A stretch of DNA of 64,000 nucleotides, taken from assembly GCF_016097555.1 (NCBI RefSeq), contig NC_054701.1, positions 30,746,707-30,810,706 on the forward strand. The letters are read 5' to 3'. Positions within the stretch are counted from its first letter, which is position 1. Each line of letters starts with the position of its first letter. Below the pieces are notes generated by a model. The model ran no database searches, had not been told where the DNA came from, and saw only the letters and a list, made by a program, of their open reading frames with translations. Made by a program: the position numbers and the translations under genes. Positions 7,395 to 53,908 of this stretch are shown piece after piece. The DNA comes from Gigantopelta aegis (lineage: Eukaryota; Mollusca; Gastropoda; Neomphalida; Peltospiridae).

Positions 7395-7440
7395 ATGGTT
7401 TCTTTTCAAACCGGATTCGCTTATCAATTAGTTTTATCAT
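7395..7440 (+). CDS. Gene 1 exon 1 (start of signal peptide)
   Basis: ATG plus 14 codons and one extra base, then a strong GTAAGTAT donor. It has the same 46-nt length and phase as exon 1 of gene 2, with matching residues (MVSFQ versus MACFQ). A TATA-like box lies 53 bp upstream. Confidence 0.72.
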
Positions 7441-9307
7441 GTAAGTATATTATCTAATATTTCATAATTTTAATATAACCAAGAAATTTTAATTATTTTG
7501 TTTTAATCTACCTTATTCAGTTTACGACTACTGGGCTACATCAGGGTTTCTACCAAGGGTATGAAGGGTAAAATTACGTATTCTAAAATCTTGGAAATTA
7601 ATGGATACAATGTTATATTGTTTAGATAGAACTGTTGTTTTAAAAAAAATTAAAAGTACATGAAATACAGTATCCAATTTCAAAAGATTTCAAACCTATA
7701 ACCACCTAGTAGTGGAACGTTTGATCTATTTTGTCTTTATTATGTACCCTCAAATTATTTTCTGGCAGAAAGCCTGTAACTGTCCAATATATGGAAAATA
7801 TGCCAAATTGTCTGAAAATGATATAAATGACTCGCTTCAGTACAATAATTCAACTATTGGCGATTAACAGACAGAATACACATACCACACCTTTTGGCCT
7901 AACAGGAACGGGAAATATATCAAAGATGGTGAAAATCAATCTGATTAAAATTAGCTCTACTGGTCTACCAGTAGATCTAACAGCATTGCATGGACTCCAA
8001 TGTCCAGGTGACATTTCATGTATAAATAACAATTTAAATATTGACCAATTACACTTCGCCTTTTGTAGCGTTATTCGGGAGCATACAAATTCCAAAAATA
8101 TCGTGCGAGACTATTTATGCAATAGGCGAACTTGTTGGTCTATTTCAACATTAAAAAAAACAGGGGGAAAAGTGCAATAATAAACTCTGGATTGTATACT
8201 AGTATAAACAGATTTTATGGCTATACCATCACGGTTTTTTTTGTTTGTCTTGAAACGAATTTTATATAAAATTTTATATTGAAATTAGTTTTCAGCATAC
8301 TTCGTAATTCACCCGAATCATTTCGTATACCCTCGGCATAATCCCGAATCTTTTCAAATTCTTTTCAAATCACTTGCATGATTTTGCAAGTAAGGTTTTG
8401 ATTGATCGAATGAAAGGTCAACTGGACATGATCTCCAACGGGGTGCTGTTAGATCCACGGGTAATAGTAATTAACCACTGGAGCTAATTTTAATTAGATT
8501 GAGTGAAAATAACAGGATAAAAAACAAATGGGTGAAAATGTTTGCTTAAATGTTTTCCTTCTTGACCCGTCTGAAAGGTTTAAGTATACTGCACAACAAA
8601 CGAAACACGAATATCTTTTCCATGATACAATTAATTCGGTAAAGAAACCTTCAAAATGGACTTTGATACTTTTAATCGGGACAAAAACTAAGAGAAATTC
8701 AAACTTAATAATTTAAAATATATTCAAGAAAACTAAATTAATATTTGCTTTTTATTGTTCTTCAGTATATGTGTGGATGTGGTGGAAAGGAAAACAATCT
8801 CTGTTCCAGATAGTTGGGAAAGAAAACCCACTGGTCGCCACGTGGGCTACTTCAACAATTAATCGTATAGCGCACCTTTCTTAAAGGTAGCACTGCACAA
8901 AACAGGCCCGTAAGAATGACATCTGGAGGGGGTGGAGGCACAATCTCTGGTGACGGGGGAACAGTCTTTAGTGGGGGAGGGGCGCAAAAGCCATATTTTA
9001 ATCATTATTTATAGAGAATAGGAAAAAAACAACCCCAAAAAACAAACCCCCGTACATCTTCGTTCTCAAATGAGGGGAAGCACCGGCTCTCCACTCCTGT
9101 TTCCTACGAGCCTGCAAAATCATGATCTTTGATATACCAGTCGTGGGACTGTTTTTTGTGGACGGTGAAAAATTCAATTGATCCAAGTTCAAGTTCAAGT
9201 TCTTTATTGCTTTAAGTTTTTACAACTTATCAGCATAATACAATGTACAACAAAATAATAAATATATACAGGATATGTACAGTATTATGGTGGAGAGTGA
9301 TTTAGTA

Positions 9308-9343
<36 letters not shown>

Positions 9344-11152
9344 AATTAAGGTTCTATTGACTTATATTATTTAATACATATAAGTCATTATTACGTATAC
9401 TGAGAGATACATGTATTATTGGTTTAATATACATGTAATCGAATAGTACTATACTAAATAAATAGAAGTAATGTTAATATTAACCAATCCAGACAGGACA
9501 ATTGATTCTACGACTTCAGACAAGCGCTCTGCTATTTATATTATCTACATCCTCCTCCGGCTTTGAAGACTACTTGGCTGAACTTGTTTCTAGAGTAGAA
9601 AGCTACTAATGTCGTGTAACGCAGTGTAAACCAGTCTAACGGTCATCATATGCACAACTAGGAGAAATGAGTAGGGTGTAGGCTGCGGTTTCTAGGATCT
9701 GGTGACGTCAACGGACACAGTTGTTGCCAGATGTACCAAAGGACGTAGGATGTGATGTTTTGTCTTTGGGAAGTGCGCATGTAAACTGTTCCTTATATAT
9801 GCAGCATTTTGCCTGCAGCGGGTTTCCTTCCTCACACTAATACATTAAAGGTTACCTGTGGTGATCGCCATAATCATCACCATTACTATCATCGCCATCA
9901 TCATCAAATCATTATCATAATCATCGTCATCATCATGGTCGTCGTCGTCATCATTATAATCGTCGTCATCATCATCATCATCATCAATATCATCATCATC
10001 ATCATCGTCGTAATCATCATCGCCTTTGTCATCGTCAATATCATCGATTCATCATCAACTTCATTATCATCATCATCTCTTTTGCTACCACTAACATCAT
10101 CATCGTACGTGATCAACATTAGCTTGGTTAATCATTAGATTTAATCGACCTATTCCAGATTGATTTGCTTAGGAAGAGAGTCGGTATAAAGAAAAAAAAT
10201 ATTATGAATCAGAGGATAACCCTGTTGTGTTTTCCGATTTGCGGACGTAGAGCTTAACTGGTCACGTGCGACGCGACAGATTTATTAATACGGCGATTGA
10301 AATCAATGATTTCTAAAATAATCGCTCGCATCGCTCGCATCGCTCACGTCCGGTTAAGATACAATTTACAAATGTTTTCTATAAAGCGGTCTCCTAACCG
10401 GACGCGAGCGACGCGAGCGAGGCGAGCGACTATTTTATAAATATGTCGCGTCGCGTGCGTGCAGTTAGGATACGGCAATGGAAATCAATGATTTTTAAAA
10501 TAATCGCTCGCATCGCTCGCGGACGATTCCCATTACCATAGTTTGACACCCAATAGCCGATGTATTTTTCGTGCTGGGGTGTCGTTAAACATTCATTCAT
10601 TCATTCATTCGCTCGCGGACGGTTAGGATAGCGCTTTAGAATACTAGTTCTTCGAGGTTTTCACCACCACGGTATTGTTTTCTGTTTCTTACAGGTTGGA
10701 TAGTGTTTTGTGCAACATCAGCACAAGACACCACACCACTGCGACGGATTTTAATACCGACATCTCGACCATGGAATCCTTTTAATGGAAATACTAACTA
10801 TGACCAAACTCAACCGCTGCCAGACTCAAACAATCAACCATACTGGGGTAGACGTCACTGGGGTGGGTGCCCTATGTGCGGTGGTGGATGGGGTCCTGGC
10901 AGAGGGTGGGGACCGGGCGGAGGTTGGGGTCGTGGCGGCAGAGGATGGGGCCCTGGCGGTGGAGGGGGTCCTGGTGGCAGAGGATGGGGTCCTGGCGGCG
11001 GAGGAGGGGGTCCTGGCGGTAGAGGATGGGGACCTGGCTGGAGATGGGGTGGTAGAGGAGGACGAGGGTGGGGACCTGGCTGGAGATGGGGAGCTGGAGG
11101 TTATGGTACCAATGGCAATGGATTGAGCAATACCAACACCCCAGTACAGTGA
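7395..11152 (+). CDS. Gene 1: secreted Gly/Trp-rich protein, 167 aa (2 coding exons)
   Basis: Not a family I recognise. Exons 7395-7440 and 10695-11152 join in phase 1 (46 + 458 = 504 nt). The protein starts MVSFQTGFAYQLVLSC and WIVFCATSAQD, a signal peptide with likely cleavage after Ala25. Residues 26-70 are an Asn/Pro/Gln-rich linker; Cys74 and Cys77 form a CPMC motif; residues 78-151 are low-complexity with five RGWGPG repeats and two WRWG motifs. Trp makes up about 10% of the mature chain (14 of 142) and Gly dominates the tail. Same exon layout, signal-peptide split and SAQD cleavage site as gene 2, whose protein also has two Cys just before a WGP repeat region. An extracellular structural or adhesive role is inference only. 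A likely 3'UTR intron donor (GTATGT) lies 27 nt after the stop. Confidence 0.78.
7441..9183. other. Gene 1 intron 1, first part, nothing recognised
   Basis: AT-rich unique-looking DNA. Open frames here are short and show no family resemblance. Confidence 0.5.
9184..9310 (-). mobile_element. LINE 3' end, truncated
   Basis: Begins with tandem (CAAGTT)n then CTTTATTGC, the look of a LINE 3' tail on the minus strand; no coding remains. An (AAT)n run follows. Confidence 0.45.
9708..9832 (+). mobile_element. Degenerate SINE (family 1) fragment
   Basis: GGACGTAGGATGTGATGTTT, a worn core and AGCGGGTTTCCTTCC remain. Confidence 0.4.
9862..10108. repeat. (ATC)n microsatellite, long
   Basis: About 250 bp of imperfect CAT/CGT triplets in gene 1 intron 1; opens spurious frames on both strands. 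Confidence 0.9.
10245..10628. mobile_element. Two adjacent GC-rich palindromic MITE-like repeats
   Basis: 10245-10355 runs from TAACTGGTCACGTGCGACGC to its imperfect inverse CGCTCACGTCCGGTTAA; 10390-10628 runs from CTAACCGGACGCGAGCGACG to ATCGCTCGCGGACGGTTAG. Both contain CGCTCGCATCGCTCGC and GAAATCAATGATTT. They end about 65 bp before the gene 1 exon 2 acceptor. Confidence 0.6.
10526..10609 (+). mobile_element. SINE tail (type C) inserted in the second GC-rich repeat
   Basis: ACACCCAATAGCCGATGTAT and GCTGGGGTGTCGTTAAACA with (CATT)n, flanked by the 12-bp duplication CGCTCGCGGACG (10514-10525 and 10610-10621). Confidence 0.75.
10695..11152 (+). CDS. Gene 1 exon 2 (mature Gly/Trp-rich protein)
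   Basis: Starts after a TTTCTTACAG acceptor in phase 1, encodes the end of the signal peptide (WIVFCATSA) and the whole mature chain, and ends at a TGA. The GC-rich GGNTGGGGNCCTGG-type repeats leave several other frames open. Confidence 0.82.
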
Positions 11153-11686
11153 GAAAAGTCCATCTTTCAGCATCCTGAGGTATGTTTACAAAAAGGTAGT
11201 ACTAAACCAAATAACTTCCGGCTGGGTCAAAGTTCGAGGTGCACCCAACTTTTGATAGAGAAGTTAACACCACCAGTCCTGTGATTGGTGATAAATGTGA
11301 GTGTGTTGGTTGTAAAAAAAATTAGTTTCATCTGGGCAAAAGATGTATGCAATTTTATTTCATCTAGTTCCACTGTGTAAAGTAGCCATGTGCTTGAAAC
11401 ATGTATGGGGTACCTGTAAAAAAAAAAGTACTCAATTATTTTCCGGAACTAGGGTAGTCATAGACGCTACCCGTTATCTCTTAAATGACCCCCATTGTTT
11501 TCTAATTCACTTTAAGGGTGACGTCTGGTAGTATAAATAATTTATATCTGTCGTGTTTATGTCGATTGATACGCTGCAAGTAGGAGTTTTAGCCACATAT
11601 GTTACTATTGTCGTCTATGTGATTTGATTTGGTACATGTAGTACACACCCTATAGTAAAATAATATTCCACTGATGTCTAGCAAGG

Positions 11687-11986
11687 GGGGGGGGGGGGGG
11701 GGGGGGGGGGCGGGACGTAGCTTAATGCGCGGTCTGTTTGGGATCGATCCCCGTCGGGCTATTTCTCATTCCAGCCAGTGCACCTCGATTGGCATATCAA
11801 AGGCCATGGTATCCTATCTGTGAGATGGTGCATATAAAAGATCCCTTGCTACTAATGGCAAAATGTAGCGGGTTTCCTCTCTAAGACTATATATCGCAAT
11901 TACCGAATGTTTGACATCCAATAGCTGATGATTAATACATCAATGTGCTCTAGTGGTGTCGTTAAACAAAACAAAGAAACTTTATA
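11687..11986 (+). mobile_element. SINE (family 1) with a poly-G 5' extension
   Basis: About 24 G precede the head CGGGACGTAGCTTAATGCGC; core and type A tail follow. It lies after gene 1 exon 2. Confidence 0.8.
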
Positions 11987-12175
11987 ATCTAATTGGCAAT
12001 CACTCCTTAAGAGTTCATTGTTGTTAGACTCTACCTCATGGAAAAGGACTGTCCCATTCAATCGAAATCACGTTTTGAAAATACCTATATGATGTAAACC
12101 ACATTTCATAGACAATAGTAAGGTGAGTGGCTGATTAACACACACAATAGATATAAATACTACAATCCCTCATCC

Positions 12176-13594: not shown

Positions 13595-13600
13595 AAATAT

Positions 13601-13687
<87 letters not shown>

Positions 13688-13758: not shown

Positions 13759-13806
<48 letters not shown>

Positions 13807-21903: not shown

Positions 21904-21949
21904 ATGGCTTGTTTCCAAATAACTTTAATCTGTGGACTGGCATTATTAC
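21904..21949 (+). CDS. Gene 2 exon 1 (start of signal peptide)
   Basis: ATG in the context CCCAATGG, 15 codons plus one base, then a GTGAGTAT donor. Joining to 26936 completes a Leu codon and a continuous hydrophobic core. A (TA)n TATA-like box lies just upstream. Confidence 0.75.
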
Positions 21950-24900: not shown

Positions 24901-27669
24901 GTTTTCTTTGTCAGAATATACAAGTAATAGATTACTACATTCATGGCCGTTAGTAGCCCGAGTACTCTGACTGTTGAGGGCTATACGGACATTTGGACAG
25001 ATATTCAGCCCTGGATAGCTGTCCAAATGTCCATATAGCCCTCAACAGTCAGAGTACTCGGGCTAGGCCGTTAGATATCAGTTATCCTACAACTAGTTGT
25101 TAATAAACGTATCCAACTCGCTCTCGCTCGTTAGATACGTGAAACAATTCATAAGATAAATGATATTCCAGTTCTAACGGCCAGTCATATCGTATGTCTC
25201 CATTTATTATCAAAGTGCCCCCATCCTTTTCCCGGCGAACGTGTGTACACATCCGGGCTGCGTTCAACCACACCGAGCAGGAAAAACGTCCGCTAGACTG
25301 GTTTAGGCGCCTCACGTTAAACCAAATGTCCACGTCGGGAACCAATAAAATATTTTTAAAATATGAGCGAAACGTTCGCTGGCTGAACGTAGGGCTGTTG
25401 TATGATGACGATGATTATCATAGAGCTTGGTGCTGATGCATAGCTTCTGTACTCTGACTTCAGTGGACTTGGTTTGAGTTTGGAGTTTTCCTTCTCCTAG
25501 GAGAGTTTCTTTACTAGGATTCTGAGCCTCTCCAGCCCAGTTTTGATTTTGGAGTTTGCTTCTCCTAGACAGTTGTCTTTCTTGACTCACGTCCTCTGTC
25601 TGTCCGATCCATAGTGGCCTAGTCTCTGCCCTTTGACAAGTCCAGCTTGGGTGACCCTACCAGGAGCTGATGCTCCAGCCTGCATAGCTTTCCGAGTCAT
25701 TGAAACATGCAAGCTACCTCACCACGTCAAGGAATGGACCATGAGATAGTTGTTGTATGTATTAATGTAATCAACAGAACGATCGTGTACACATGTTCGC
25801 CGGAAAAAAAGGGGGGGGGGGGGCATAAATACTATGTGTAATGTTAGAATATGTTGGCCAAACGTTTTACAATGTTTTTGCAATGATTTATGCTGCACGA
25901 CAGGACAAGAAATGTAAAAAGGGCAATAAGTTAGTTATCTCCCTTGACATGTCTTTTTTTTCTTCTTTCTATTTTTTTTTTTTTTTGGTGGCGGGGTCAT
26001 CATCCATTTATTGGAGTCTCGTTGGCCTTGTTGGAATTCGTTTGTTGATTTGTTTGAAGGCATAAAGGCCAATAGACTCAGCTGTTAAAGGGTAAAATAA
26101 TGGACCGACCTGTTATCCAGTTTTAGTCCGAATCGGACCAAGAAAATTGGTATTTTTTAAATGTAGATATTGGGTTACTCAAGTTTGCCTAAATTAACTG
26201 CAATATAGATTCGAGCTTGTCGCTGAAAATTTACTAGAATGACAAGCCACATTAAAAAAACAAAAAACAATTCATGTTAATTAGGGTATATTATGACGCC
26301 ACAAGTCCTAGGCTAAAGTCAAGATCAAAGAGTACAAATGATGGCCAACTGCCACCGTAAAGTTTAGTTGTTTTGTCGTCTGGTACTTAAAATAACGCGT
26401 AAAAATAACAATCAAATAAAGTTGTATATACCACAACAAATGTACATGTACGTACAATGGAATATCGCATGGCTGATATATCAAAAGTCGTAGTATGTAC
26501 TGTCATGTATATGGGACTGTGCATATTTGATAGAAGTACATGTACAAGTAATCTCGTTGGGAACATAGAGTTTCTTTTCTCTCGCTATCTATATCAAATG
26601 ACTCAAAGTTTGTTTTGTTTAACGACACCACTAGAGCACATTGATTTATTAGTCATCGGCAGCTGGATGTCAAACATTTCATAATTTTGACATTTAGTCT
26701 TAGAGAGGAAGCCCGCTACATTTTTCCATTAGTAGCAAATGATATTTTATATGCACCATCCCACAGACATGATAGTACATACCACAGCCTTTAATATACC
26801 AGTAGTGGTGCACTAGCTACGACGAAAAGTAGTCCATTGAGCCCACCGATGGGGATCAAATGACGCAAAGATGCGGCCGGTAAGGGCGGTTAAATGTTTT
26901 CGCTATTTTCACTCTTTGTTTTCTTTTGTTCACAGTTGGGATTGTATTTTCCACGTCAGCACAAGACCCCCAACAAGAGCGTGTTACTGTAACAAACACT
27001 CGCCCCAACACCACAACAACAGGACAATATCCTTACTACGGGCCACCGTGTCGTTGGGGAAGATGCTGGCATCATAGAGGATGGGGTCCTCCGTGGGCGT
27101 CGCATAGGCGAGGATGGGGACCACCTTGGGCATGGAATCGGGGCCAAAACCAAGGATCCAGTCAGAATGACGGATCGCAAACACCAGAGGGATCACCTCA
27201 AGGAAGAAGATGGGGTCCTCCTTGGGCGTGGCAAGGACGAAGATGGGGACCACCTTGGGCTTGGAATCAGGACCGATGGGGACAGAACGACGGATCCAGT
27301 CAGAATGAGGGATCACAATTACCTCAAGGATCAGACCTGGGTCCAGAATGGGGACCACCTCAAAGGTGGGGACCACCCGAAGGATGGGGTCAGGGCGTGG
27401 AATTGAGCAACCCAGAGGAATCCAACCAGAGTGCAGGGTGGGGTCCACGTCCCTGGGGCTGGGGTCGTGGAAGAGGAATTGGCCCCGGCTGGGGTTGGAG
27501 ACATCCCGGCTGGAGATGGGGTCATGAATGGAAATGGGTTCCAGGGCAGGGATGGAGTCATGTCGGGGCCCCGACGCCAACTGATAGTCCAGCAAATAGT
27601 GACCCGACCACACCAATGTACAACAACCAACTGAATTCGTTGGAGGGAGGATTTGAAAGGCAGCAGTGA
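21904..27669 (+). CDS. Gene 2: secreted Trp/Pro/Gln-rich protein, 259 aa (2 coding exons)
   Basis: Not a family I recognise. Exons 21904-21949 and 26936-27669 join in phase 1 (46 + 734 = 780 nt). The signal peptide MACFQITLICGLALL / LGIVFSTSA probably ends after Ala24 (STSA/QD). Residues 25-50 are Thr/Gln/Asn-rich, then Tyr-rich; Cys54 and Cys59 form CRWGRC. Four copies of RGWGPPWA or RRWGPPWAW follow, separated by Gln/Asn/Ser spacers (QNDGSSQNEG type), then WGPP repeats and a Trp/Arg/Gly segment (WGWRHPGWRW); the C-terminus is hydrophilic. I count 27 Trp in 259 residues (10.4%). Close relative of gene 1 by signal peptide, intron position, paired Cys and WGP repeats. A probable 3'UTR intron donor (GTACGT) lies 32 nt after the stop. 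Expected to be secreted; function unknown. Confidence 0.8.
22205..22660. mobile_element. SINE (family 1, plus) interrupted by a second SINE (tail B, minus)
   Basis: Outer copy 22225-22357 and 22602-22660; inner copy 22358-22589; the target AACATCCAATAG is duplicated at 22346-22357 and 22590-22601. Confidence 0.85.
22665..22815 (-). mobile_element. SINE (family 2), partial
   Basis: TTAAAATTCACTCTGGGTGG to ACCATTATACCACTAAGGCT on the minus strand. Confidence 0.65.
23304..23657. mobile_element. MITE family A, diverged copy
   Basis: TTAAAGACGCAGATTAGTT to GGGTCTGTCACTTTAA with CAGACGAACGTGCGTTTTT. Confidence 0.65.
23985..24370. repeat. Dispersed repeat D, copy 2
   Basis: GGCCCAAAACACACGAAAG, GCTGCCAGTCTGGCAGT, GCCAGATCTGTAGTTCGCG; uninterrupted where copy 1 has its insertion. 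Confidence 0.6.
24645..24812. repeat. Dispersed repeat E, copy 1
   Basis: GTATGCTCCCCCGTAAAATT, TTGCATTCTACAAGTA and GCCTTAAGATTTAT recur at 54735-54912, each ending in a G run. Confidence 0.55.
24954..25065. mobile_element. 112-bp near-perfect palindrome (MITE) with 9-bp target duplication
   Basis: Arms of 46 bp (AGCCCGAGTACTCTGACTGT ...) around an 18-nt loop; GGCCGTTAG on both sides (24945-24953, 25066-25074). Nine-bp duplications are typical of Mutator-like elements. Confidence 0.8.
25255..25392. mobile_element. Inverted-repeat MITE F, copy 1
   Basis: GGGCTGCGTTCAACCAC at the left, GGCTGAACGTAGGGC at the right; relative at 52004-52145 and half copy near 15915. Confidence 0.5.
25393..26600. 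other. Gene 2 intron 1, third part, nothing recognised
   Basis: Unique-looking sequence with a G run at 25811 and a T run at 25971; no coding or repeat family seen. Confidence 0.5.
26607..26862 (-). mobile_element. SINE (family 1) just before gene 2 exon 2
   Basis: Minus-strand tail A, core and part of head; ends about 75 bp before the acceptor. Confidence 0.8.
26936..27669 (+). CDS. Gene 2 exon 2 (mature Trp-rich protein)
   Basis: Starts after CTTTTGTTCACAG in phase 1 and runs to a TGA. The exon lies 70-80 bp downstream of a minus-strand SINE that sits in the end of the intron. The opposite strand is open along almost the whole exon because of the repeat composition. Confidence 0.85.
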
Positions 27670-31212: not shown

Positions 31213-32711
31213 TACTCTTCAAAAAAAAGAAACGCAAAAGGGTACAAATGGGTTATAACTCCGATTTTATGTTTCCTACCGGTTCATGCTTTGTGAATAT
31301 AAGGTCATTGCATGTCCCAAACACATTCCCACGGTTACATTCGATAAAACGCAGCTACTGTACAATAAAGTTCCAAAATGTGAATATTCGCAAAAACGCA
31401 GCCACGTGCAAACCATGTCACCACTGCACGTGCGTTGTCTGCACGTGCAACATGAACACCGACAGTATAAAAGTGCAGGGTGTTCGCTTGCCTGGCCTCT
31501 GTATCTGGCCGACAGTTGACAATCCAGGACATGCCACGTCTCAGTGAACCGCAGAGAAACAATGCCATCGGCCGACTAGACGCAGGCGAATCCAGAACGG
31601 CCGTTGCCAGGGCATTCCATGTGTCCCCAAGCACCATCTCCAGACTGTGGGACCGTTACCAGCAACATGGATCAACACGTGACCTCCCTAGATCCGGTCG
31701 ACCACGGGTCACTACCCCCGGGCAGGACCGCTACATCCGGGTACGCCACCTTCGGGAACGATTGACTACTGCCACCTCCACAGCCGCAGCAATACCAGGT
31801 TTGCGCAGGATATCCGACCAGACCGTACGGAACCGCCTACGTGAGGTAGGAATTCGTGCCAGACGTCCAGTTCGAGGTGTCATCTTAACACCACAACATC
31901 GTCGACTCCGACTGCAGTGGTGCCAGATTCATCGACAATGGCCTCAACTGCGATGGAGACAGGTGTGGTTCAGTGACGAGTCCCGATTTCTGCTCCGACG
32001 TCATGATGGAAGATGTCGCGTGTATAGGCGTCGTGGTGAACGTTATGCGGCAAACTGCGTGCAGGAAGTGGACAGATTCGGCGGGGGTAGTGTCATGGTG
32101 TGGGCAGCCATCTCACACACTGGCAGAACTGACCTGGTCCACGTGCAGGGCAACCTGAATGCACAGGGCTACATTGACCAGATCCTCCGGCCACACATCG
32201 TTCCAGTTATGGCCAACGCCAACGCAGTGTTCCAACATGACAACGCCAGGCCTCACACAGCACGTCTCACAACGGCTTTTCTACAGAACAACAACATTAA
32301 TGTCCTTCCTTGGCCATCGATATCACCGGATTTGAACCCAAATGAGCATCTATGGGACGAGTTGGACCGACGCCTCCGACAGCGACAACCACAGCCCCAG
32401 ACCCTGCCCGAGCTGGCAGCAGCCTTGCAGGCCGAGTGGGCCACCATCCCCCGGGACGTCATCCGTACTCTGGTTGTTTCAATGGGCAGGCGGTGCCAGG
32501 CAGTTGTCAACACACGCGGAGGCCACACCCGGTATTGACTCCAGATGACCTTGACCTTGGTGGTGTGTCCTATTACTTACTCACAATGGACTAGAGTGAA
32601 TTGTGAACAATCCTGCAACATTTGGTAATTATCGGACTCACCATTCAATAATTAAATCAATTCTCCAAATGTTACGACAATGTGGTTTTGCGTTTCTTCT
32701 TTTGAAGAGTA
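31213..32711 (+). mobile_element. Tc1/mariner-type transposon, apparently complete
   Basis: About 1.5 kb between TA dinucleotides. The left end begins CTCTTCAAAAAAAAGAAACG and the right end is its inverted match (CTCTTCAAAAGAAGAAACGC on the minus strand), then they diverge after about 25 bp. It encloses one uninterrupted transposase gene. A SINE begins within 10 bp of the right end. Confidence 0.9.
31531..32538 (+). CDS. Tc1-family transposase, 335 aa, intact
   Basis: Catalyses cut-and-paste transposition into TA sites. The N-terminal half has the paired helix-turn-helix DNA-binding region (AVARAFHVSPSTISRLWDRY around residues 24-43) and a GRPR AT-hook-like motif at 56-59. The catalytic triad is Asp149 (WFSDESRF), Asp237 (FQHDNARPHTA) and Glu272 (SPDLNPNEHLWDEL), with 34 residues between the last two, the DD34E signature of Tc1. 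The glycine-rich box FGGGSVMVW is present at 183-191. Length is normal for the family. The start at 31531 (MPRLSEPQRN) is chosen because upstream in-frame codons have no family resemblance. No stop or frameshift is seen, so the copy may have moved recently. Confidence 0.93.
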   Translation: MPRLSEPQRNNAIGRLDAGESRTAVARAFHVSPSTISRLWDRYQQHGSTRDLPRSGRPRVTTPGQDRYIRVRHLRERLTTATSTAAAIPGLRRISDQTVRNRLREVGIRARRPVRGVILTPQHRRLRLQWCQIHRQWPQLRWRQVWFSDESRFLLRRHDGRCRVYRRRGERYAANCVQEVDRFGGGSVMVWAAISHTGRTDLVHVQGNLNAQGYIDQILRPHIVPVMANANAVFQHDNARPHTARLTTAFLQNNNINVLPWPSISPDLNPNEHLWDELDRRLRQRQPQPQTLPELAAALQAEWATIPRDVIRTLVVSMGRRCQAVVNTRGGHTRY

Positions 32712-32713
32712 TA

Positions 32714-35611: not shown

Positions 35612-35642
35612 ATGATGATGATGATGATGTGGTCGCTTATAG
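35612..35642 (+). CDS. Gene 3 exon 1 (start of signal peptide, six ATG codons)
   Basis: Six consecutive ATG codons, then TGG TCG CTT ATA G and a GTTAGT donor, the same donor hexamer as gene 4. Joined to 41781 it completes an Ala codon and a signal peptide ending LGYVAS. Any of the six ATGs could start translation. Confidence 0.55.
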
Positions 35643-39946: not shown

Positions 39947-42900
39947 TCGCGGAAAAAAGTTCCTGTGCACCAAATGATTGGATATAGAATATAATTTACT
40001 TGAAATCTGGTTATAACAATTTCAGTAACTGAACGTGTAATCACTCCCGTCGATATTCCAGCGGTGTCCTGTCAATTGCAGGAACTATTCATACTTTGTG
40101 ATCACACGTTGCTTCTGTTTGACGTCATTTTTCTTATCATTGGACTTTAAAACTATTGTATGGATTCTCATCACTCAGAAAAATATTTTTGTTGGTATCT
40201 GATCGTCGTCAGTGTGATGCCACGCCTCCCAGAAAATGGACTCCTTCGAACGATGGGTATGATTGAGGTTATAACGGCACAAACGCTGTTGCTAGTAATT
40301 TTGGTATTCATTGGTGTTCATCAGAACACTATGCAATATCTGCGGAGATGTTCTCGACAGTTTAGGGGTGCTAGAGATCTTCCATGTTTAAGGAGTCGAC
40401 ACGTGACGCCACGTCAGCAAATCGTCAGTATTAAGCGGGTGCACATATGGAATCATTTGGAAATGATACGTTTAACATCCTAATGCATGTCTAAGCTAAG
40501 GCCAATCAGTGGAAGAAATGAACGCAACCGATTAGGTGATAACAAAGTACGACCATGACCGTACATCAGTACGTTGTTCTGTTCCATCATCACCGACGGC
40601 TCACCAAACATTGTGTAGACAGTACTTCAGGTTCAGAAGGCAGGAGAGGATCACCATATTTTTAACAGATAAATAGTACATCTATGTAAATCACAATATT
40701 TTTAAATTTAAAAGTCCTACTGAAATTTTAATGATGTACAGGAACTTTTTTCCGTAAGTATATATAACTTATGTTCAAAGCCATTGATATAAATATAAAA
40801 TTGACAAATCATTAAAAAATAAAAATAAAACATGAATTAAAGCTTTACAATAAATCAGTGGTGTTATTGTAGGAATAGGCCTTAAGACAGGTAGGTACGA
40901 GGTTCGCACGAATTTTAATGTCTCAATGGGAGACAACTACACCGAACCATTAATGTACCGTCCTGGCCTGTCCCGAAGTGAGTGCTAAATACAGCGTGCT
41001 TGAAACTTACTTGGATATAAGCTCGGAAACAAGTGGAAACAACTAAATAACTAACTAAACAGACACACGTGTACGTCACAACATAAACATATAAACGAAA
41101 CCAGGCAGGATCTAGCCCAGATTGTAGAGCGTTCGCCTGAGGTGCTCGTGTCGTAGGATGATGATTGAACCACCTCAGTGGGCCCATTTTATAATTGTTT
41201 GTTTCCCGTCCCAACCAGTGCCCCACGACTGGTATATCAAAGGCCGTGGTAACAAACGTGTATATTAAAGATCCCTTTCTGTTAATGGAAAAATGTAACG
41301 GATTACCTTTAAGACTATGTTTTAAAAATTTACCAAAATGTTACAGTCAATGTTTAACCGCTACACCACCAAGGATGTTATTGTCCTTCAAAGTATTGTT
41401 GTTTTTCAAATACTGACACGTCATATAACTGTTGTTTGGGTTCTCTTTTCAGCGCTGGGGGCGGGATGTAGCCCAGTGGTAATGCACTGTCCGTCGGGAA
41501 TAGATTCCAATCCCTGTAGGTGGGCTCATTTGGCTATTTCACGTTCCAGCCATTGCACCACGACTGGTATATCAAAGGCCGTGGTACGTGCTATTCTGTG
41601 GGATGGTGCATATAAAAGATACCTTGCTACTCATGGGAAAAATGTAGCGGAGTTTCTCTCTAAGACTAAATCAAAATTACCAAATGTTTGACATCCAATA
41701 GCCGATGATTAATAAACTAATGTGCTCTAGTGGTATCGCTAAACAAAAAAAAACCTTTACTTTTTTAAACTCTTTTTCAGCGCTGTGCATATTGGGATAT
41801 GTTGCATCAAATAATGGCGAAAGCAGACATCACCGCGGTCGATCGGAAACTGACTTCCGGCAGATGATGCACCGCCAGAGACAGGACGGACAGCTGGACG
41901 ACCGGGCCGTGCGCGAATACTGCGAACAGATGCTGAGGTATCACCAGATTGTGCAGAATATCCGGGACAACCCTTCCGATGCAGGACGTTACCGAGAAGA
42001 ACTCCGACTACACCACCAGGCAATGCACGGACAAGGATTTGGACGGCGCCAGGAACGGTTCCACCATGGGAGATCCCACCACGGAGGGTCCCGCCATGGA
42101 AGATTTCGTGATATGATGGGCCATCGTTTGTCCAGCCATCACGGACATCATAGATCGAGAGGCTTTAGAGGCATGGAACATAACGTCTGCGACCAGTACA
42201 GGGGAATGCAGCAATCTGCAGGACAACGTAGAGGATACAGGACGGAAAGGGGGCGTCCTGCGGTTGGTAAGGATTGTACAGAAATGATAATCTGTATATC
42301 ATTTATTGCCTTTAAAATGCGCCATTCACAGAACAAAATTAAACTTCCTCTAGTCCCCACCCCCACACCATACCCAGCAAAACACCAACATCGAAGAAAA
42401 AGAAGACAAAATGTCTGGTCCGACTGGGCTATTTCTCGTCACAGACACTGCATCACGATTGGTATATCAAAGGCCGTTATATGTGCTATCCTGTCTGTTG
42501 GATGGTGCTTATAAAATATCCTTTGCTATTAATGGACAAACGTAGTGCATTTCCTCTGAAGACTACGAGTCAAAATTACCAAATATTTGACATCTAATAG
42601 AAGATGATTAATAAATCAATGCGCTCTAATGGTGTCGTTAAATAACATACACTTTAACTTTTTTCACGAGTCTGGAGAGACGTCCACTTTGCTACTCTCT
42701 TCCACCTCGTCTTATGTGCTCATGGTAATAGTAGAACGATCACATAACAAATATTAGTGGGGGCGGGACGTAGCTCAGTGGTAAATTAAAGCTTTTGCCT
42801 GATGCGCGATCGGTCTAGGATCAATCCTCGTCAGTGGGCCCAATTAGCTATTTCTCGTTCCAGTCACTAGTGTAACAAAGGTCTTGGTATGTACTATCCT

Positions 42901-43649
42901 GTCTGAGGGATACTGCATATAAAATATTCCTTGCTGCTAATCGGAAAAAGTAGCCCATTACGTGCCGGCTACGGATTTTCTCTCTATTTATCTGTGTTGT
43001 CCTTAACCATATTTCTTACGCAATGAGACTGTAATTAAAATGTGTTGAGTACATCGTTAAATACAACATTTCCCCCTTTATCTTTCATGGGGCGAGACGT
43101 AGCCCAGTGGTAAGCACTCACTTGAAACGCGGTCGGTCTGGGATCGATCCCCGTCGGTGGCCCCATTGGGCTATATCTCGTTCCTGCTAGTGCACTACGA
43201 CTGGTATATCACAGACAGTGGTTTTTGCAATTCTGTCTGTGGGATGGTGCAAATAAAACATCCCTTGCTACGAATGGAAAAGTATAGCTGGTTTTCTCTC
43301 TAAGACTAGATGTGAAAATTACCAAATGTTTGACATCCAACAGCCGATGATTAATAAATCAATGTGCTCTAGTGGTGTCGTTAAACAAAACACACTTTAA
43401 CTTTATCTTTCATAAATATTACTTGGAAAACAAAACAAAACATGCATCACGCACTACATCTATTTACAAAACATTAAACGATCGACTTAGACTCGGCGTT
43501 AAATACTCGAAAGGTATATTATATATTCTGTACGAATTTTAACATCAATATTTTGTCTTGTTTCAGACCAGGACTTCCAGGACGACATAACCTTGAATAA
43601 CATGGCTAACATGGGCAACAACGCTCGACAAGTCCATAAGAAAAAATAA
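35612..43649 (+). CDS. Gene 3: secreted Arg/His-rich protein, 199 aa (3 coding exons)
   Basis: Not a family I recognise. Exons 35612-35642, 41781-42266 and 43567-43649 join in phase 1 at both introns (31 + 486 + 83 = 600 nt). The signal peptide reads MMMMMMWSLI / ALCILGYVAS with cleavage likely after Ser20. Residues 55-94 form a module shared with gene 4: REYCEQMLRY, then NP at 74-75, YREELRLHH and MHG. Residues 97-142 are His/Arg/Gly-rich (HHGRSHHGG, GHHRSRG). One Cys lies in the module (Cys58) and one at 147. Exon 3 adds DQDFQDDITLNN and a basic end. I count about 31 Arg and 19 His in 179 mature residues. The first exon is the least certain part: an out-of-frame ATG lies upstream at 35556. 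Metal, phosphate or polyanion binding would suit the composition but is inference. Confidence 0.72.
35775..35883. mobile_element. Palindromic MITE, copy 2, in gene 3 intron 1
   Basis: GGGCCCCGTTCCACGAAGCG and inverse CGCTTCGTGGAACGGGGCCC, perfect over the outer 20 bp; about 130 bp after exon 1. Confidence 0.75.
35935..36150. mobile_element. MITE family B, degenerate copy
   Basis: TTCTTGTTTAGAATATCAGT, GAAATAAAATGAAGTTTGAC and AGGACGATCAGAAACACG blocks. Confidence 0.5.
36995..37258 (+). mobile_element. SINE (family 1), shortened
   Basis: Head TTGATCTAGCTCAGTCAATA to tail A, with part of the core missing; a worn second copy lies at 37530-37710. Confidence 0.7.
37711..39480. other. Gene 3 intron 1, middle, nothing coding recognised
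   Basis: AT-rich, G run at 37917-37932, long A/C-rich tract 38750-38960 (CAAAACAAAACA type). Confidence 0.5.
39491..39580 (+). mobile_element. SINE tail (type C) with (AATCT)n end
   Basis: GTTTGACACCCAACAGCCGA to GGGTGTCGTTAAACATCTAA; same tail as 10526-10609 but a different terminal microsatellite. Confidence 0.7.
39893..39944. repeat. (TA)n microsatellite
   Basis: About 50 bp of pure TA, directly abutting the transposon end at 39944. Confidence 0.9.
39944..40760. mobile_element. Non-autonomous TA-target DNA transposon
   Basis: Ends CTCGCGGAAAAAAGTTCCTG and, inverted, CTTACGGAAAAAAGTTCCTG next to TA. The 0.8-kb interior has one 107-residue frame without recognisable transposase motifs. 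Confidence 0.7.
40883..41345 (+). mobile_element. Degenerate SINE family 2 (40883-41040) and SINE family 1 (41107-41345)
   Basis: The first keeps ACAGGTAGGTACGAGGTTCG and CAGCGTGCTTGAAACTTAC; the second keeps head GATCTAGCCCAGATTGTAGA and core CCACGACTGGTATATCAAAG. Confidence 0.6.
41458..41769 (+). mobile_element. Full-length SINE (family 1) across the gene 3 splice acceptor
   Basis: A 312-bp tRNA-derived SINE: head GATGTAGCCCAGTGGTAATG, core GGATGGTGCATATAAAAGAT, tail GATGATTAATAAACTAATG. Target duplication CTCTTTT(T)CAGCGCTG at 41443-41457 and 41770-41785 contains the intron acceptor and first 5 exon bases of gene 3. Confidence 0.88.
41781..42266 (+). CDS. Gene 3 exon 2 (40-residue module and His/Arg-rich region)
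   Basis: Starts at the CTCTTTTTCAG acceptor that belongs to the downstream copy of a SINE target-site duplication, and ends at a GTAAGG donor. It is a symmetric 1-1 phase exon of 162 codons. Confidence 0.82.
42415..42655 (+). mobile_element. SINE (family 1), head missing
   Basis: Core and type A tail (GATTAATAAATCAATGCGCT) in gene 3 intron 2. Confidence 0.75.
42762..43080 (+). mobile_element. SINE (family 1 head, tail type B)
   Basis: Head GGCGGGACGTAGCTCAGTGG, core TGCATATAAAATATTCCTTG, tail ATATTTCTTACG ... GTTGAGTACATCGTTAAATA, the tail type ending in T/C-rich sequence. Confidence 0.8.
43089..43400 (+). mobile_element. Full-length SINE (family 1), young, in gene 3 intron 2
   Basis: Also 312 bp, head GAGACGTAGCCCAGTGGTAA to tail AACAAAACACACTTTAA, with the perfect 13-bp duplication CTTTATCTTTCAT at 43076-43088 and 43401-43413. 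The duplicated target lies at the end of the SINE at 42762-43080. Confidence 0.88.
43567..43649 (+). CDS. Gene 3 exon 3 (C-terminus)
   Basis: Starts after TCTTGTTTCAG in phase 1; encodes QDFQDDITLNNMANMGNN and ends in a Lys run before TAA. Matches the position and phase of exon 3 in gene 4. Confidence 0.72.
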
Positions 43650-46669: not shown

Positions 46670-46691
46670 ATGGCGACGCTGGCTCTGCTAG
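46670..46691 (+). CDS. Gene 4 exon 1 (start of signal peptide)
   Basis: ATG in the context CCACAATGG, seven codons plus one base, then a GTTAGT donor. Joined to 50048 it gives a textbook signal peptide with the LGYVAS end also found in gene 3. Confidence 0.78.
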
Positions 46692-49600: not shown

Positions 49601-52600
49601 CTCAGTGATATTGTAGATTTTATTGCATTTAGTGATGATGTATATTTTATAACTGAGGTGAGACTTTAATAAACAATTCATATGTCTATATTGTTTGTCT
49701 GTCTGTCTGGTTGTATACAGTAGAGTTGGTTTATAGTTTATACCAGCTCATTAGTTTGTCTATATTTCCTATGTCGATGACAGTGTTTGAGCTACTATAG
49801 TATGATACATTTGTCCACCTTACTTGTAAAATTATATTTGAAAAGTATTTTAAATTGAAGAGACCACACCCAGAGTATTTAAAATGTTAAAATAAAGAAG
49901 AAAAAACCCCAACTAAAGCCAAAAACATTTAAATTGAAAAATAACGCACTCACAACATCTAAGATTTTGTTGGTTTTCGTATTTTTAACAATGTATTTGT
50001 TGATTATCATTTATTTTTAACTATTTGCTTTTCTTTTTTATTTTCAGTAATATGTTTATTAGGCTACGTTGCATCCCAGGAAGGGCAAGCGCCTAAAGAC
50101 ATCCTCACGAACAACAATAACATGGGGTTTGGCATGGGAGGGATGATGGGTCAGATGTTCGGGGGAGACGAAGCCGCAACTCGTGAGCACGTTGAAGCGA
50201 TGAAGAAATTCCGCCAGAACATGATGGCGAGCTGGGGCAACCCCGAGGAGATGCAGAAACACCGAGAGCAGATGAAGAAACACATCAAGAAGATCCACGG
50301 GTCGCGAACTAGACACCATCATAAGTCGAAACAGAGGGGACCCGGCAACTACGGCATGATGGGGGGCCCCGGCATGATGTGGCGCAACGGCATGATGGGA
50401 GGCCCTGGCATGATGGGAGGCCCTGGCATGATGTGGCGTAACGGCATGATGGGAGGCCCTGGCATGATGAGAGGCCCTGGCATGATGTGGCGCAACGGCA
50501 TGATGGGAGGCCCCGGCATGACGGAACAACAGAGACGAGTGATGCAGCAGTATATGAACAACATGATGGGCTATCCCGCAAAGAACGGTCCAGGTAAAAT
50601 CATTTTAAACATAAAACTCAAGCAGAGGCAGGTAGGATGTTGTGCAGTATTAGATCTTTCTCCTGATTTGATCATGATCGCACGACCACATCTCCCCACC
50701 CCCACCCTATCACAAATCTTAATGGACACATCGTTCATGTTTTTGTTTCAACCAGTACTCCACAATCGGCATGTTAACGATGTGATAATGCGTACGGACT
50801 CCCATTTTTGTTGGAGGGCAGGTTGATTTTTCCCCCGAATCATACTAAAATGCCTTAATCTGGATAACAACATCTATTCATAGGGCCCATTCGAATTGCT
50901 ACCAAACACTATATATGGTGTTACAAGCTAATCACTACGCAGTTTCACATGGATTACAAATAATATTATGAGTAGAATGATGAAAACATCCAGACCAGCT
51001 CATTTGTCCGAACGTCTCCATCGTTTTTACCCGAATGCGACCTTCTGCTCCAACACGGGGAGGGGTGGACTAGTAATATCCTCGCTTGACCCGCCCTTCT
51101 CGTATGCTTTTACAGAAGAAAAAATGGAACTAATAAATTTAAATTATCATGAACCCCAATTAACTTAAACAAAAAAAGGAATCTGTGTGTTTGTGTAACG
51201 ACGCCAGCATCACAACACAAAGTTCAATTAGCAACTAGGAAGGAAGGAAGGAAAATGGTTTTTAACGACGCACTGAACACATTTTATTTACGGTTATATG
51301 GCGTCAGACATATGGTTAATGACCACACAGATATTGCGGCAGGAAACCCGCTGTCACTACTTCATGGGCTACTCTTTTCAATTAGCAGCAAAGGATCTTT
51401 TATATGCACCATCCCATAGACAGGATAGCACATACCACGGCCTTTGATGTACCAGTCGTGATGCACTGGCTGGAGCGAGAAATAGCGCAATGGGCCCACT
51501 GACGGGGATCGATCCCAAACCGACTGCGCGGGTATTGTACCACTGGGCTACGCCTCGCCCCCCCCCCCCCCCCCCCCCCCCCCTACCAAGGAGTCTTTTA
51601 CATGATCCTGTCTTTGGGATGGTACATATAAAAGATCCCTGGCTGCTCATCGAAAGCTGCTACATTTTTCCATTAGCAGCAAGGGATCTTTTATATACAC
51701 TTTCCCACAGGCAGATAGGACAGCACATACCACGGCTTTTGATATGCCAGTCGTAGAGTTCTAGGACGGGGGTTTGATCCTACAACAAGTACATACAACT
51801 CCGGCGAGCGCTCTACTGACTGAGCTAGAACCCACGCCTATGAGTTAGCTACGTTGTGTTTTACAATACATATATTGTATGACTATACTTTTTAAAGTTG
51901 CTTTATATGACTAAGTAGAACGCACCGCCGAGCACGACGATCTTATCAAAGGTACAAAAATACACCAACTACGTGCGTAGGCCTACAGGTACACGAAGTT
52001 CAGGGGCAAGTTCAGCCAGACATTAATCGCTAACGCTCGCAATACCGGTTTTTACGCTGCAAGGTAAACCGAATAACTACTTCGGGAACCAGTCAAAACA
52101 GTTTGCAAAAGTTTTAACGAAAAATGGTTGGCTGAACGCAGCTGGCCATGTTTCGTGAGGCGTTTGTAAAATGATGTCACTCAAGATGATGCATTAGTCA
52201 CAACAATACGTCAGGGCTCCGGGTAATGTGTCAGGCAAGATAATGCGTCAGTTAAACAACCAAAACAAAACTGTAAAAATGTAATTAACAAAAAAAAAAA
52301 AAAAAAAAAAAATCCATTATTGTATGGCTGACTGGCCGGCCGGCCGGCCGACTGGCTGGTTCGTGGCTGGCTGGCTGGCTGGCCGACTGGGTGGGAGTGG
52401 TTGGATAGCTAGATGGCTGGCTGAATGGAATGGGTGAATGGCCGGCCGAACAGAGTGTCTGTCTGTCTATCTGTAAATATGTAGGTCAGGTCATAGAGCT
52501 TAACGTGCACATTCAGAGCAAGCTGTTGTAGTACGCACCTGTCATGGACATAGGTGTTGACAGACACGGGCTCATTCGTCCAGGACAGGAAAGGGGTTGG

Positions 52601-53398
52601 GATGGGAGGGAGAAGGGACCACCCGCGTTGGCAAGTGCAAGAGATCACCAGCAGCCCGACCGTGGTGTATCTGTGGTGTTATTGAATTGTAAAGGTTCGG
52701 TAGGATTAAGTCCAAATATTAAAATTTGCGCAGTTTCTTGAGGTAATTTTTCATTGATTCATCGAAAGTAAAGTTGAGGAGCTATATGAGTAATTTTGAC
52801 TTAAGTTTGCCACAATATAGCTCTTATCTGTAAATATCCATATCGGTTGGCCCGAAAAAAAAGATAACCCAACTGAATATGGAATTTTAGAAAAGTATGG
52901 GGACTAACTTATATTTCACAAATGTAAAAAAAAAAAAAAAAAAAATGCTGTTTTTACTTACAATTTTGGATCTGTTGCTATTTTAACAATATTTGACCTA
53001 CATGGGCTACACTTTTCGATTAGCAGCAAGGGATCTTTTATATGCACCATCCCATAGACAGGATAGCACATACCACGGCCTTTGATGTACCAGTCGTGGT
53101 GCACTGGCTGGAGCGAGAAATAGCCCAATGGGCCCACCGACGGGGATCGATCCCAGATCGACCGCGCATCGAGCGAGCGCTTTACCACTGGACTACGTCC
53201 CGCCCCTATTGATAGATAAATGTATGGATGTGTGTGACTGCATTGATAAATGGACGGATGGATGGCATGGGTGAATGTAACGTTGTCTGAATTGATAGAT
53301 GGGTGGATGGGCGAGTGAATAAATGGAAGGTGTGTGTGTGTGTGTGTTTCTGTGTGTGTGTGTGTCTCTCTCTCTGTGTGTGTGTGTGTGTCTGTCTG

Positions 53399-53449
<51 letters not shown>

Positions 53450-53471
53450 CTGTGTGTGTGTGTGTCTGTGC

Positions 53472-53519
<48 letters not shown>

Positions 53520-53522
53520 ATG

Positions 53523-53598
<76 letters not shown>

Positions 53599-53908
53599 AA
53601 TGAATGGATGGATGAATGGATGGATGGATGAGTTAATGTATCTGTGGATGAATCGATGAGTATATGGATGAATGAATATGTTATTGGATGATGCATGGAA
53701 GGATGGTGGATGTAAGGGATGGAAGGATGGTGAATGGATGAACGGACGGAGGATGACTGGATAAATGGAGGGGTGGAATAACACTCATACTCAAATATTG
53801 TATTGTGTTATATATATGATACTAGTTTTTCTTTTTTTCGTTTCAGAATCAGTAACTCAGCAAGGCTCACCAGTGTTGAAGGATGTGAATAAAATGGTCG
53901 CCCCATAA
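46670..53908 (+). CDS. Gene 4: secreted Met/Gly-rich protein, 209 aa (3 coding exons)
   Basis: Not a family I recognise. Exons 46670-46691, 50048-50593 and 53847-53908 join in phase 1 at both introns (22 + 546 + 62 = 630 nt). The signal peptide MATLALL / [10 protein letters not shown] probably ends after Ser17. Residues 33-48 are Gly/Met-rich. Residues 53-92 are the module shared with gene 3: [12 protein letters not shown] at 72-73, HREQMKKH and IHG. A basic His/Lys stretch (RTRHHHKSK) follows. Residues 114-165 hold three near-exact 18-residue units ([18 protein letters not shown] type). Residues 166-209 contain [18 protein letters not shown] and a hydrophilic tail. I count 34 Met in about 192 mature residues (18%) and no Cys after the signal peptide. 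The many MM pairs recall copper-binding Met motifs, but nothing here proves binding. Confidence 0.82.
47581..47961. mobile_element. MITE family A, inverted orientation, in gene 4 intron 1
   Basis: TTTAAAGGGACATACCCTAG to GCATCTGCGCCTTTAA, with ACGCACGTGCGTCTCAG inside. Confidence 0.7.
48268..49404. mobile_element. MITE family B interrupted by a LINE tail
   Basis: Left half 48268-48438 (GGGACATTCCTGAGTTTGCT), right half 49176-49404 (GCAAACTCAGGAATGTCCCT); the sequence corresponds to the intact copy at 44166. Confidence 0.8.
48439..49175 (+). mobile_element. 5'-truncated LINE tail inserted in a MITE
   Basis: Encodes the C-terminal zinc-finger-like end of a LINE protein: [44 protein letters not shown], then one frame change and [18 protein letters not shown] before a stop. 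A CT-rich 3'UTR and GGTCAATAAAAAATAAAA tail follow. Flanked by TTAAATTTT(A/G)TTT (48426-48438 and 49176-49188). Confidence 0.8.
50048..50593 (+). CDS. Gene 4 exon 2 (module and Met/Gly repeats)
   Basis: Starts after TTATTTTCAG and ends CCA G before GTAAAA; a symmetric 1-1 phase exon of 182 codons. The 54-bp repeat units leave two minus-strand frames open. Confidence 0.87.
51239..51830. mobile_element. SINE cluster in gene 4 intron 2
   Basis: A complete minus-strand SINE with tail B (51239-51560, CTTTTAACGACGCACTGAAC-like tail to CACTGGGCTACGCCTC), a poly-C run, a short plus-strand core (51585-51650) and a minus-strand core and head (51650-51830). Confidence 0.75.
52004..52145. mobile_element. 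Inverted-repeat MITE F, copy 2
   Basis: AAGTTCAGCCAGACATTAAT at the left and GGTTGGCTGAACGCAGCTGG at the right. Confidence 0.5.
52322..52450. repeat. (GGCT/GGCC)n imperfect tetramer repeat
   Basis: GGCCGGCCGGCCG and GGCTGGCTGGCTGGC runs. Confidence 0.8.
52482..52700 (+). repeat. Dispersed repeat C
   Basis: GGTCAGGTCATAGAGCTTAA, CACATTCAGAGCAAGCTGTT; third copy. Confidence 0.6.
52998..53207 (-). mobile_element. SINE (family 1), core and head
   Basis: AGCAGCAAGGGATCTTTTAT to CACTGGACTACGTCCCGCCC on the minus strand; the tail is absent. Confidence 0.8.
53225..53780. repeat. (GGAT)n / (GT)n / (CT)n block
   Basis: Alternating GATGG runs, (GT)n and three long (CT)n runs (53328-53600) in gene 4 intron 2, ending 65 bp before exon 3. 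Confidence 0.9.
53847..53908 (+). CDS. Gene 4 exon 3 (C-terminus)
   Basis: Starts after TTTTTCGTTTCAG in phase 1, encodes [19 protein letters not shown] and stops at TAA. The intron before it contains SINEs and a 270-bp (GT)n/(CT)n block. Confidence 0.75.

What the first reader, a model, noticed from the sequence alone, without database searches (positions are those of the whole stretch)
7395..53908. Tandem family of four secreted-protein genes built on one plan
Four plus-strand genes over 46 kb share a layout: a tiny first exon (22-46 nt), a phase-1 intron of 3-6 kb splitting the signal peptide 8-9 codons before the predicted cleavage site, and one large exon for the mature protein. Signal peptides pair up: SAQD in genes 1 and 2 (MVSFQ / MACFQ starts), LGYVAS in genes 3 and 4. 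All exon sums are exact multiples of three. Mature sequences share almost nothing between pairs and are extreme in composition. This suggests duplication with very fast low-complexity divergence, as known for shell-matrix, byssal, egg-capsule or slime proteins. I know no named family that fits.
Basis: partly seen in the sequence, partly recalled or inferred. Interest (0 to 1): 0.9.

Follow-up and report, generated by a model that had tools for sequence, protein, structure and literature searches.

The report
Two pairs of secreted snail proteins
A deep-sea vent snail carries, side by side, two pairs of genes for secreted, repeat-rich proteins that look like building material for a shell, mucus or similar outer layer; the genes look real, but they form two small families rather than one, and this type of gene is already well known.

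Summary
The four gene models largely hold up. The window is Gigantopelta aegis contig C3. My spliced gene 2 is identical to a public protein of this species (259 aa, named 'endo-1,4-beta-xylanase C-like'). Gene 3, given a third exon that I located, is identical to 'uncharacterized protein LOC121367874' (199 aa). No record was found for gene 4 or, searched only as a profile row, gene 1. A scan for the layout found these four genes on the plus strand, none on the minus strand and none in 20 shuffles, with cut-offs set after seeing the splice scores. 'One family' is not supported: genes 3 and 4 are clear paralogues, genes 1 and 2 probable ones, and cross-pair similarity is absent or repeat-driven. 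Phase-1 introns in signal peptides are common in animals (PMC1626468). 'Very fast divergence' is unproven: synonymous sites of genes 3 and 4 are near saturation. Most likely they are lineage-restricted, low-complexity secreted structural proteins of the shell-matrix kind. Tissue and function are untested.

The parts
7395..7440 (+). gene 1 exon 1 (46 nt; start and first part of the signal peptide; phase-1 donor GTAAGT)
   Evidence: (donor rank 12 of 3817); one other possible first exon in the scan; no public record found (as one profile row)
10695..11152 (+). gene 1 exon 2 (end of signal peptide, mature Gly/Pro/Arg/Trp-rich protein, stop)
   Evidence: acceptor rank 7 of 3430; only itself found in own genome at E <= 0.001; composition
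21904..21949 (+). gene 2 exon 1 (46 nt)
   Evidence: spliced product 100% identical to public protein P0003, 259 aa
26936..27669 (+). gene 2 exon 2 (end of signal peptide, mature Gly/Pro/Trp-rich protein with RWGPPWAW-type repeats, stop)
35612..35642 (+). gene 3 exon 1 (31 nt; begins in an ATG repeat; start codon as in public record P0004)
41781..42266 (+). gene 3 exon 2 (end of signal peptide, helical block, Arg/Gly/His-rich tail; phase-1 donor)
   Evidence: AlphaFold helices 51-73 and 75-94
   Evidence: found, read, acceptor rank 31 of 3430, confirmed by P0004; my notebook entry gives the end one base too far
46670..46691 (+). gene 4 exon 1 (22 nt; donor GTTAGT like gene 3)
   Evidence: three other possible first exons in the scan; no public record
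50048..50593 (+). gene 4 exon 2 (end of signal peptide, helical block, Met/Gly-rich MMGGPGMM repeats; phase-1 donor)
53847..53908 (+). gene 4 exon 3 (C-terminal residues and stop)
   Evidence: acceptor rank 1 of 3430; gene 3 has a corresponding exon

Best explanation
Two neighbouring pairs of locally duplicated, lineage-restricted genes for secreted structural proteins. In each, the first exon and the start of the second encode a signal peptide that sends the protein into the secretory pathway (inferred from sequence). The mature products are low-complexity chains. Pair A (genes 1, 2) is Gly/Pro/Trp-rich WGP-repeat material, suited to aromatic and hydrophobic self-assembly (inference). Pair B (genes 3, 4) has a short two-helix block followed by a tail that diverged into Arg/Gly/His-rich (gene 3) or Gly/Met-rich (gene 4). 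I infer that they are laid down outside the cell as part of an insoluble organic layer, most likely the mantle-made matrix or periostracum of the shell, with mucus or another gland as the next choice. Repeat slippage would change the tails while signal peptide, helical block and exon structure stay. Shown here: gene structures (two of four confirmed by public records), paralogy of 3 and 4, composition, no copies detected elsewhere in the genome. Inferred: secretion, assembly, tissue.
For: Exact public protein records for genes 2 and 3. Layout scan. Genes 3/4: signal peptide z 7.8, mature z 8.1, helical block z 10.7, C-terminal part z 4.4 with 0 of 1000 shuffles as high, equal three-exon phase-1 structure. 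Genes 1/2: mature z 4.9 and a 58-bp DNA match over acceptor and signal peptide, 75.9%, E 9e-5. Composition: G 37%, P 12%, W 10% (gene 1); G 17%, P 14%, W 11.5% (gene 2); R 17%, G 11%, H 11% (gene 3); G 19%, M 18% (gene 4). AlphaFold on a two-row alignment: residues 51-90 at block means of 70-81, 147 of 199 residues below 50. Precedents: G/M-rich [GMPG/MXn] repeats after a signal peptide in a major abalone shell protein (PMC6003135, passages); methionine-rich insoluble shell proteins, one of which (NU-5) is needed for nacre tablets by knock-down (PMC7591529, abstract and passages); repetitive low-complexity domains at a higher ratio in mantle-expressed genes of the scaly-foot snail but not in its scale-secreting epithelium (PMC7142155, passages).
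Against: No expression, proteome or localisation data were available. Low-complexity composition is shared by glues, silks, mucus and antimicrobial proteins, so shell matrix is a choice by precedent. Genes 1 and 4 have no public protein record. No convincing relative outside the species was found: gene 2 found only itself at E <= 1e-3 among 870 candidates, the A1 profile only the gene 3 record below 1e-3, and gene 4 one protein at 8.4e-4 that matches by Met/Gly repeats. Gene 1/2 similarity outside signal peptide and repeats is not significant (z 0.9), and their mature score is hardly above that of genes 1/4.
Confidence: 0.55

Rival explanations
1. All four genes descend from one ancestral gene whose mature part was replaced or diverged beyond recognition.
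For: Same strand, within 46 kb, same phase-1 signal-peptide intron in all four; no other gene of this layout in 200 kb to the left (5400 N) or 50 kb to the right apart from two matches inside one long ORF; genes 1 and 4 score z 4.7 in the mature part.
Against: The 1/4 score lies in Gly/Pro repeats; no other cross-pair similarity in signal peptide or mature part, none clear in 300 bases upstream; pair B has three coding exons and pair A two; this intron type is common (PMC1626468).
Confidence: 0.17
2. Foot, hypobranchial, egg-coat or adhesive mucus proteins rather than shell matrix: secreted, repeat-rich, changeable glue-like proteins.
For: The Drosophila Sgs1-3-7-8 glue family has a similar plan: first coding exon 28 bp in Sgs1 (19-28 bp in Sgs3), phase-1 intron in the signal peptide, repeat-rich second exon (PMC10835880, passages).
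Against: No tissue data either way; the Sgs signature motif is absent (read by eye); first introns here are 3-6 kb while those of Sgs1 are 50-71 bp; the second Drosophila glue family lacks this intron position.
Confidence: 0.25
3. Secreted defence or symbiosis peptides: cationic Gly/Trp- or His/Arg-rich proteins acting on microbes.
For: Net charge by K+R-D-E of +11, +3, +13 and +13; the host keeps two bacterial endosymbionts (PMC7895826, abstract in the search listing and passages).
Against: No Pfam or NCBIfam family above threshold; 0-2 cysteines in each mature part; long WGP and MMGGPGMM repeats resemble structural material more (judgement). PADLOC and PHROGs were not searched.
Confidence: 0.13
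4. Artefact: exons joined by eye across intergenic DNA.
For: First exons of 22-46 nt are easy to find by chance; the scan offered 2 for gene 1, 11 for gene 3 (most of them nested in the ATG repeat) and 4 for gene 4.
Against: Two of four models equal public proteins exactly; 0 of 20 shuffles gave any such gene; splice sites rank high.
Confidence: 0.03

Closest known systems
Repetitive low-complexity shell matrix proteins of molluscs (review PMC4897951; Haliotis laevigata CLC_12027/idb_54497; Pinctada NU-5 and LMP)
   Same: secreted, biased composition, disordered repeats, lineage-restricted; the G/M/P repeats of the abalone protein recall gene 4
   Different: no sequence relative found; presence in a shell not tested; for the Trp-rich WGP repeats of genes 1 and 2 I found no precedent: none of the 12 papers listed, of 52 found, holds the term 'tryptophan-rich'
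Drosophila Sgs1/3/7/8 salivary glue gene family (PMC10835880)
   Same: tiny first exon, phase-1 intron inside the signal peptide, large repeat exon, local copies
   Different: no IRXC[L/V]C motif by eye; long first introns; third coding exon in genes 3 and 4; no sequence comparison was run
Met-rich proteins P0002, P0005, P0006 (probably bacterial; no organism given)
   Same: weak database matches to gene 4 (P0002, E 8.4e-4) or profile A1 (P0005, P0006, E 4.3e-3 and 6.4e-3), all with [12 protein letters not shown] stretches
   Different: gene 4 exon 2 shows neither of P0002's two precomputed Pfam domains at E <= 1; taken as convergence of composition
Endo-1,4-beta-xylanase C (public name given to gene 2)
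   Same: only the name
   Different: gene 2 exon 2 has no Pfam match at E <= 1; the name is probably a composition-driven mislabel (inference)

Membership tests
single four-gene family | similarity of signal or mature sequence across pairs above composition | tested here: not met
   mature z 0.1, 0.1, 2.4, and 4.7 for genes 1/4 within repeats; signal peptide z -0.2 to 1.6
paralogous pair, genes 3 and 4 | mature homology plus equal exon structure | tested here: met
   acceptor-plus-LGYVA pattern, at most 1 mismatch, found only at genes 3 and 4 in the 1.15-Gb assembly, reversed control 0
paralogous pair, genes 1 and 2 | homology beyond composition | tested here: inconclusive
   mature z 4.9 but partly repeat-driven; non-repeat part z 0.9; signal peptide z 2.0; 58-bp DNA match E 9e-5
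mollusc shell matrix proteins with low-complexity domains | signal peptide | tested here: met
   simple hydrophobicity and small-residue rule only; SignalP not available
mollusc shell matrix proteins with low-complexity domains | repetitive low-complexity mature chain | tested here: met
   composition, all four; disorder by low pLDDT for gene 3 only
mollusc shell matrix proteins with low-complexity domains | found in the shell and expressed in mantle | not testable with these tools
   no transcript or proteome data held
Drosophila Sgs1-3-7-8 glue family | phase-1 intron in signal peptide, tiny first exon, repeat exon | tested here: met
Drosophila Sgs1-3-7-8 glue family | C-terminal IRXC[L/V]C motif | tested here: not met
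   read by eye in the four protein sequences
endo-1,4-beta-xylanase | glycoside hydrolase domain | tested here: not met
   0 Pfam families for gene 2 exon 2; 0 NCBIfam for P0003

The most novel reading that the evidence does not exclude
A vent-specific extracellular mineral-handling set: His/Arg-rich gene 3 and Met-rich gene 4 bind metals delivered by vent fluid, and the Trp-rich genes 1 and 2 form the organic sheet beneath, helping G. aegis carry the thick rusty layer on its periostracum that its congener G. chessoia lacks (observation from PMC5333402, passages). Metal binding by Met- and His-rich repeats is recalled general knowledge and was not tested here.
Probability: 0.07. Interest if true: 0.7.

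Novelty: new member of a known kind. Interest (0 to 1): 0.36.

Why it matters
It gives corrected models for four uncharacterised secreted genes in a vent snail, two of them confirmed by public records and two for which no public record was found in my searches, and shows one exon plan carrying apparently unrelated low-complexity products. If expressed in mantle, they are candidate shell or periostracum components in Neomphalina. Gene 2's public enzyme name should be checked.

Tried and rejected
More members: tblastn of the four proteins over 200 kb left (5400 N) and 50 kb right gave no convincing further member (listings capped at 25 and 12 rows per query). The Gly-rich matches near left 159 kb lie antisense to a Pro-rich ORF beside retrotransposon-like ORFs by eye; those at left 145-148 kb are a simple repeat; short Gly-rich matches near left 161.1 and 190.7 kb were not followed up. 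Own-genome searches with exon 2 of each gene returned only the query at E <= 0.001; none detected its own partner, so distant relatives elsewhere in the genome can be missed. The pattern did not spell gene 1's true start and tests nothing. Segmental duplication: apart from the 58-bp gene 1/2 match, the DNA matches between the four loci look like interspersed repeats, many copies per locus (judgement). Promoter conservation: none clear. Bacterial origin of gene 4: matches are repeat-driven by eye; rejected. Rfam: 0 matches at gathering score; tRNA: 0; PDB by sequence: one match, E 0.15, for gene 4 exon 2, the only one searched. Fold search was not run because only 37 of 199 residues reached pLDDT 70. 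The paper search for LOC121367874 found 0 papers. PMC7736800, the other G. aegis genome paper, was seen in passages only: no mention of 'shell matrix', 'mantle' or 'xylanase'.

The public-record search for gene 1 was made only as one row of the three-row profile A1, where 7997 candidates sharing most words were scored, so its absence is less certain than that of gene 4 (single query, and a row of A1).

Full report
What the window is. The own-genome search places the window at contig C3:30746707-30810706 of a 1.15-Gb assembly. My spliced gene 2 is 100% identical over 259 residues to a protein labelled Gigantopelta aegis, whose record gives a longest contig of 96,789,575 bases, the length of C3. 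I take the species as settled: a deep-sea hydrothermal vent snail.

The observation. I rebuilt the four genes. Gene 1: 7395-7440 and 10695-11152. Gene 2: 21904-21949 and 26936-27669. Gene 3: 35612-35642, 41781-42266 and 43567-43649. Gene 4: 46670-46691, 50048-50593 and 53847-53908. All four first introns are phase 1, 3.3-6.1 kb long, and lie 8-9 codons before a small-residue cleavage site. Scored with a simple consensus, the six acceptors rank 7, 13, 10, 31, 2 and 1 among 3430 AGs and the six donors 12, 90, 69, 35, 69 and 60 among 3817 GTs. A scan for the layout (ATG exon of 16-61 nt, phase-1 donor, intron up to 8 kb, good acceptor, open frame of 130 codons, hydrophobic leader) returned exactly four exon-2 acceptors on the plus strand, none on the minus strand, and none in any of 20 dinucleotide shuffles. 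The cut-offs were set, so this is a consistency check, not a blind test. Relaxed to 60 codons it added one acceptor, at 41453, on the plus strand and none on the minus strand. In the flanks the 130-codon scan gave 0 in 200 kb on the left (5400 N) and 2 in 50 kb on the right, both inside one 1579-codon ORF.

Independent confirmation. Gene 3 lacked an end: its large exon closes with a phase-1 donor. A search for a partner of gene 4's last exon pointed to 43567-43649; it was not the best match by similarity to gene 4's exon but stood out among candidates with a good pyrimidine tract. The resulting protein is identical to public record P0004, 'uncharacterized protein LOC121367874 [Gigantopelta aegis]', 199 residues, whose start makes exon 1 31 nt. 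So two of four models are reproduced by an annotation I did not use to build them. No record turned up for gene 4 or, as one row of a profile, for gene 1. For these two the first exon rests on sequence alone, and the scan found one and three alternatives.

Family relations. Genes 3 and 4 align at 28% over 88 residues, E 1.7e-10. Against 1000 composition shuffles, z is 7.8 for the signal peptides, 8.1 for the mature parts, 10.7 for the helical block and 4.4 for the C-terminal part. They share the three-exon, phase-1 structure. An acceptor-plus-LGYVA DNA pattern with up to one mismatch occurs only at these two places in the assembly, with 0 for the reversed control. Genes 1 and 2 share SAQD, WGP repeats, a mature z of 4.9 and a 58-bp DNA match across the acceptor (75.9%, E 9e-5), but outside repeats their mature N-termini are not similar beyond chance (z 0.9). 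Across pairs, genes 1 and 4 reach z 4.7, nearly the value of genes 1 and 2; the aligned stretches are Gly/Pro repeats. The other three cross-pair values are 0.1, 0.1 and 2.4. In the 45-codon helical block of genes 3 and 4, pS is 0.74 and dN 0.66. Synonymous sites are close to saturation, so an old duplication with constraint on the helical block is as good a reading as fast divergence.

Base rate of the layout. Phase-1 introns near the signal-peptide cleavage site are over-represented in animals (PMC1626468, abstract and passages). The Drosophila Sgs1-3-7-8 glue family shows a similar plan, with a 28-bp first exon in Sgs1; the second glue family lacks that intron, and the two match only in the signal peptide (PMC10835880, passages). 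The layout is therefore real but not unusual, and it does not by itself make the four genes one family.

What the proteins look like. Mature parts are 142, 235, 179 and 192 residues: Gly/Pro/Arg/Trp-rich, Gly/Pro/Trp-rich, Arg/Gly/His-rich and Gly/Met-rich. Pfam gives nothing at E <= 1 for exon 2 of genes 1-3 and only two matches below their cut-offs for gene 4; NCBIfam gives none at E <= 0.1. AlphaFold on the two-row alignment of gene 3 and gene 4 exon 2 puts helices at residues 51-73 and 75-94, with block means of 70-81 for residues 51-90, and leaves 147 of 199 residues below 50. Gene 2's public name, a xylanase, has no domain behind it.

Explanation. The best-supported reading is two local pairs of lineage-restricted secreted structural proteins, probably of the shell-matrix kind. 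Precedents are a major abalone shell protein with G/M-rich repeats after a signal peptide (PMC6003135, passages), methionine-rich insoluble shell proteins of Pinctada including NU-5 (PMC7591529, abstract and passages), a review of repetitive low-complexity shell proteins (PMC4897951, passages), and the report that such domains have a higher ratio in mantle-expressed genes of the scaly-foot snail but not in its scale-secreting tissue (PMC7142155, passages). Mucus, glue or egg-coat proteins remain close rivals. Existing G. aegis RNA-seq from foot, mantle, ctenidium and oesophageal gland (PMC7895826, passages) would decide, but could not be mapped here.

Limits. Own-genome searches with each exon 2 found only the query, and even the known partner was missed, so copies as distant as 28% identity could be overlooked. 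The pair A pattern search did not complete. The right flank was read for only 50 kb. No sister-species genome was available.

Noticed in passing
31471-32538: Open Tc1/mariner-like transposase frame (355 aa, DDE_3) between genes 2 and 3; a copy about 6 kb left of the window is identical at 1062 of 1068 bases, suggesting recent movement.
   Followed up: partly
59123-63702: Three large minus-strand ORFs (393, 694, 311 aa) in a row with no Pfam match above the curated cut-off; unidentified gene or mobile element.
   Followed up: partly
26936-27669: Public protein name 'endo-1,4-beta-xylanase C-like' for gene 2 looks like a mislabel: no Pfam family at E <= 1.
   Followed up: yes
L025:6525-6860: ORF right of the window with a mevalonate-kinase-like look (by eye); possible conserved flanking gene for synteny tests.
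   Followed up: no
L022-L023, joined left-flank coordinates 179403-180239 and 183089-183916: Two minus-strand ORFs with metallophosphoesterase-like motifs (by eye); possible left flanking genes for synteny tests.
   Followed up: no
L029:5504-7492: 663-codon minus-strand ORF; the part printed (first 200 residues) is a tandem RGGITVAPHHSPETSS-type repeat.
   Followed up: no
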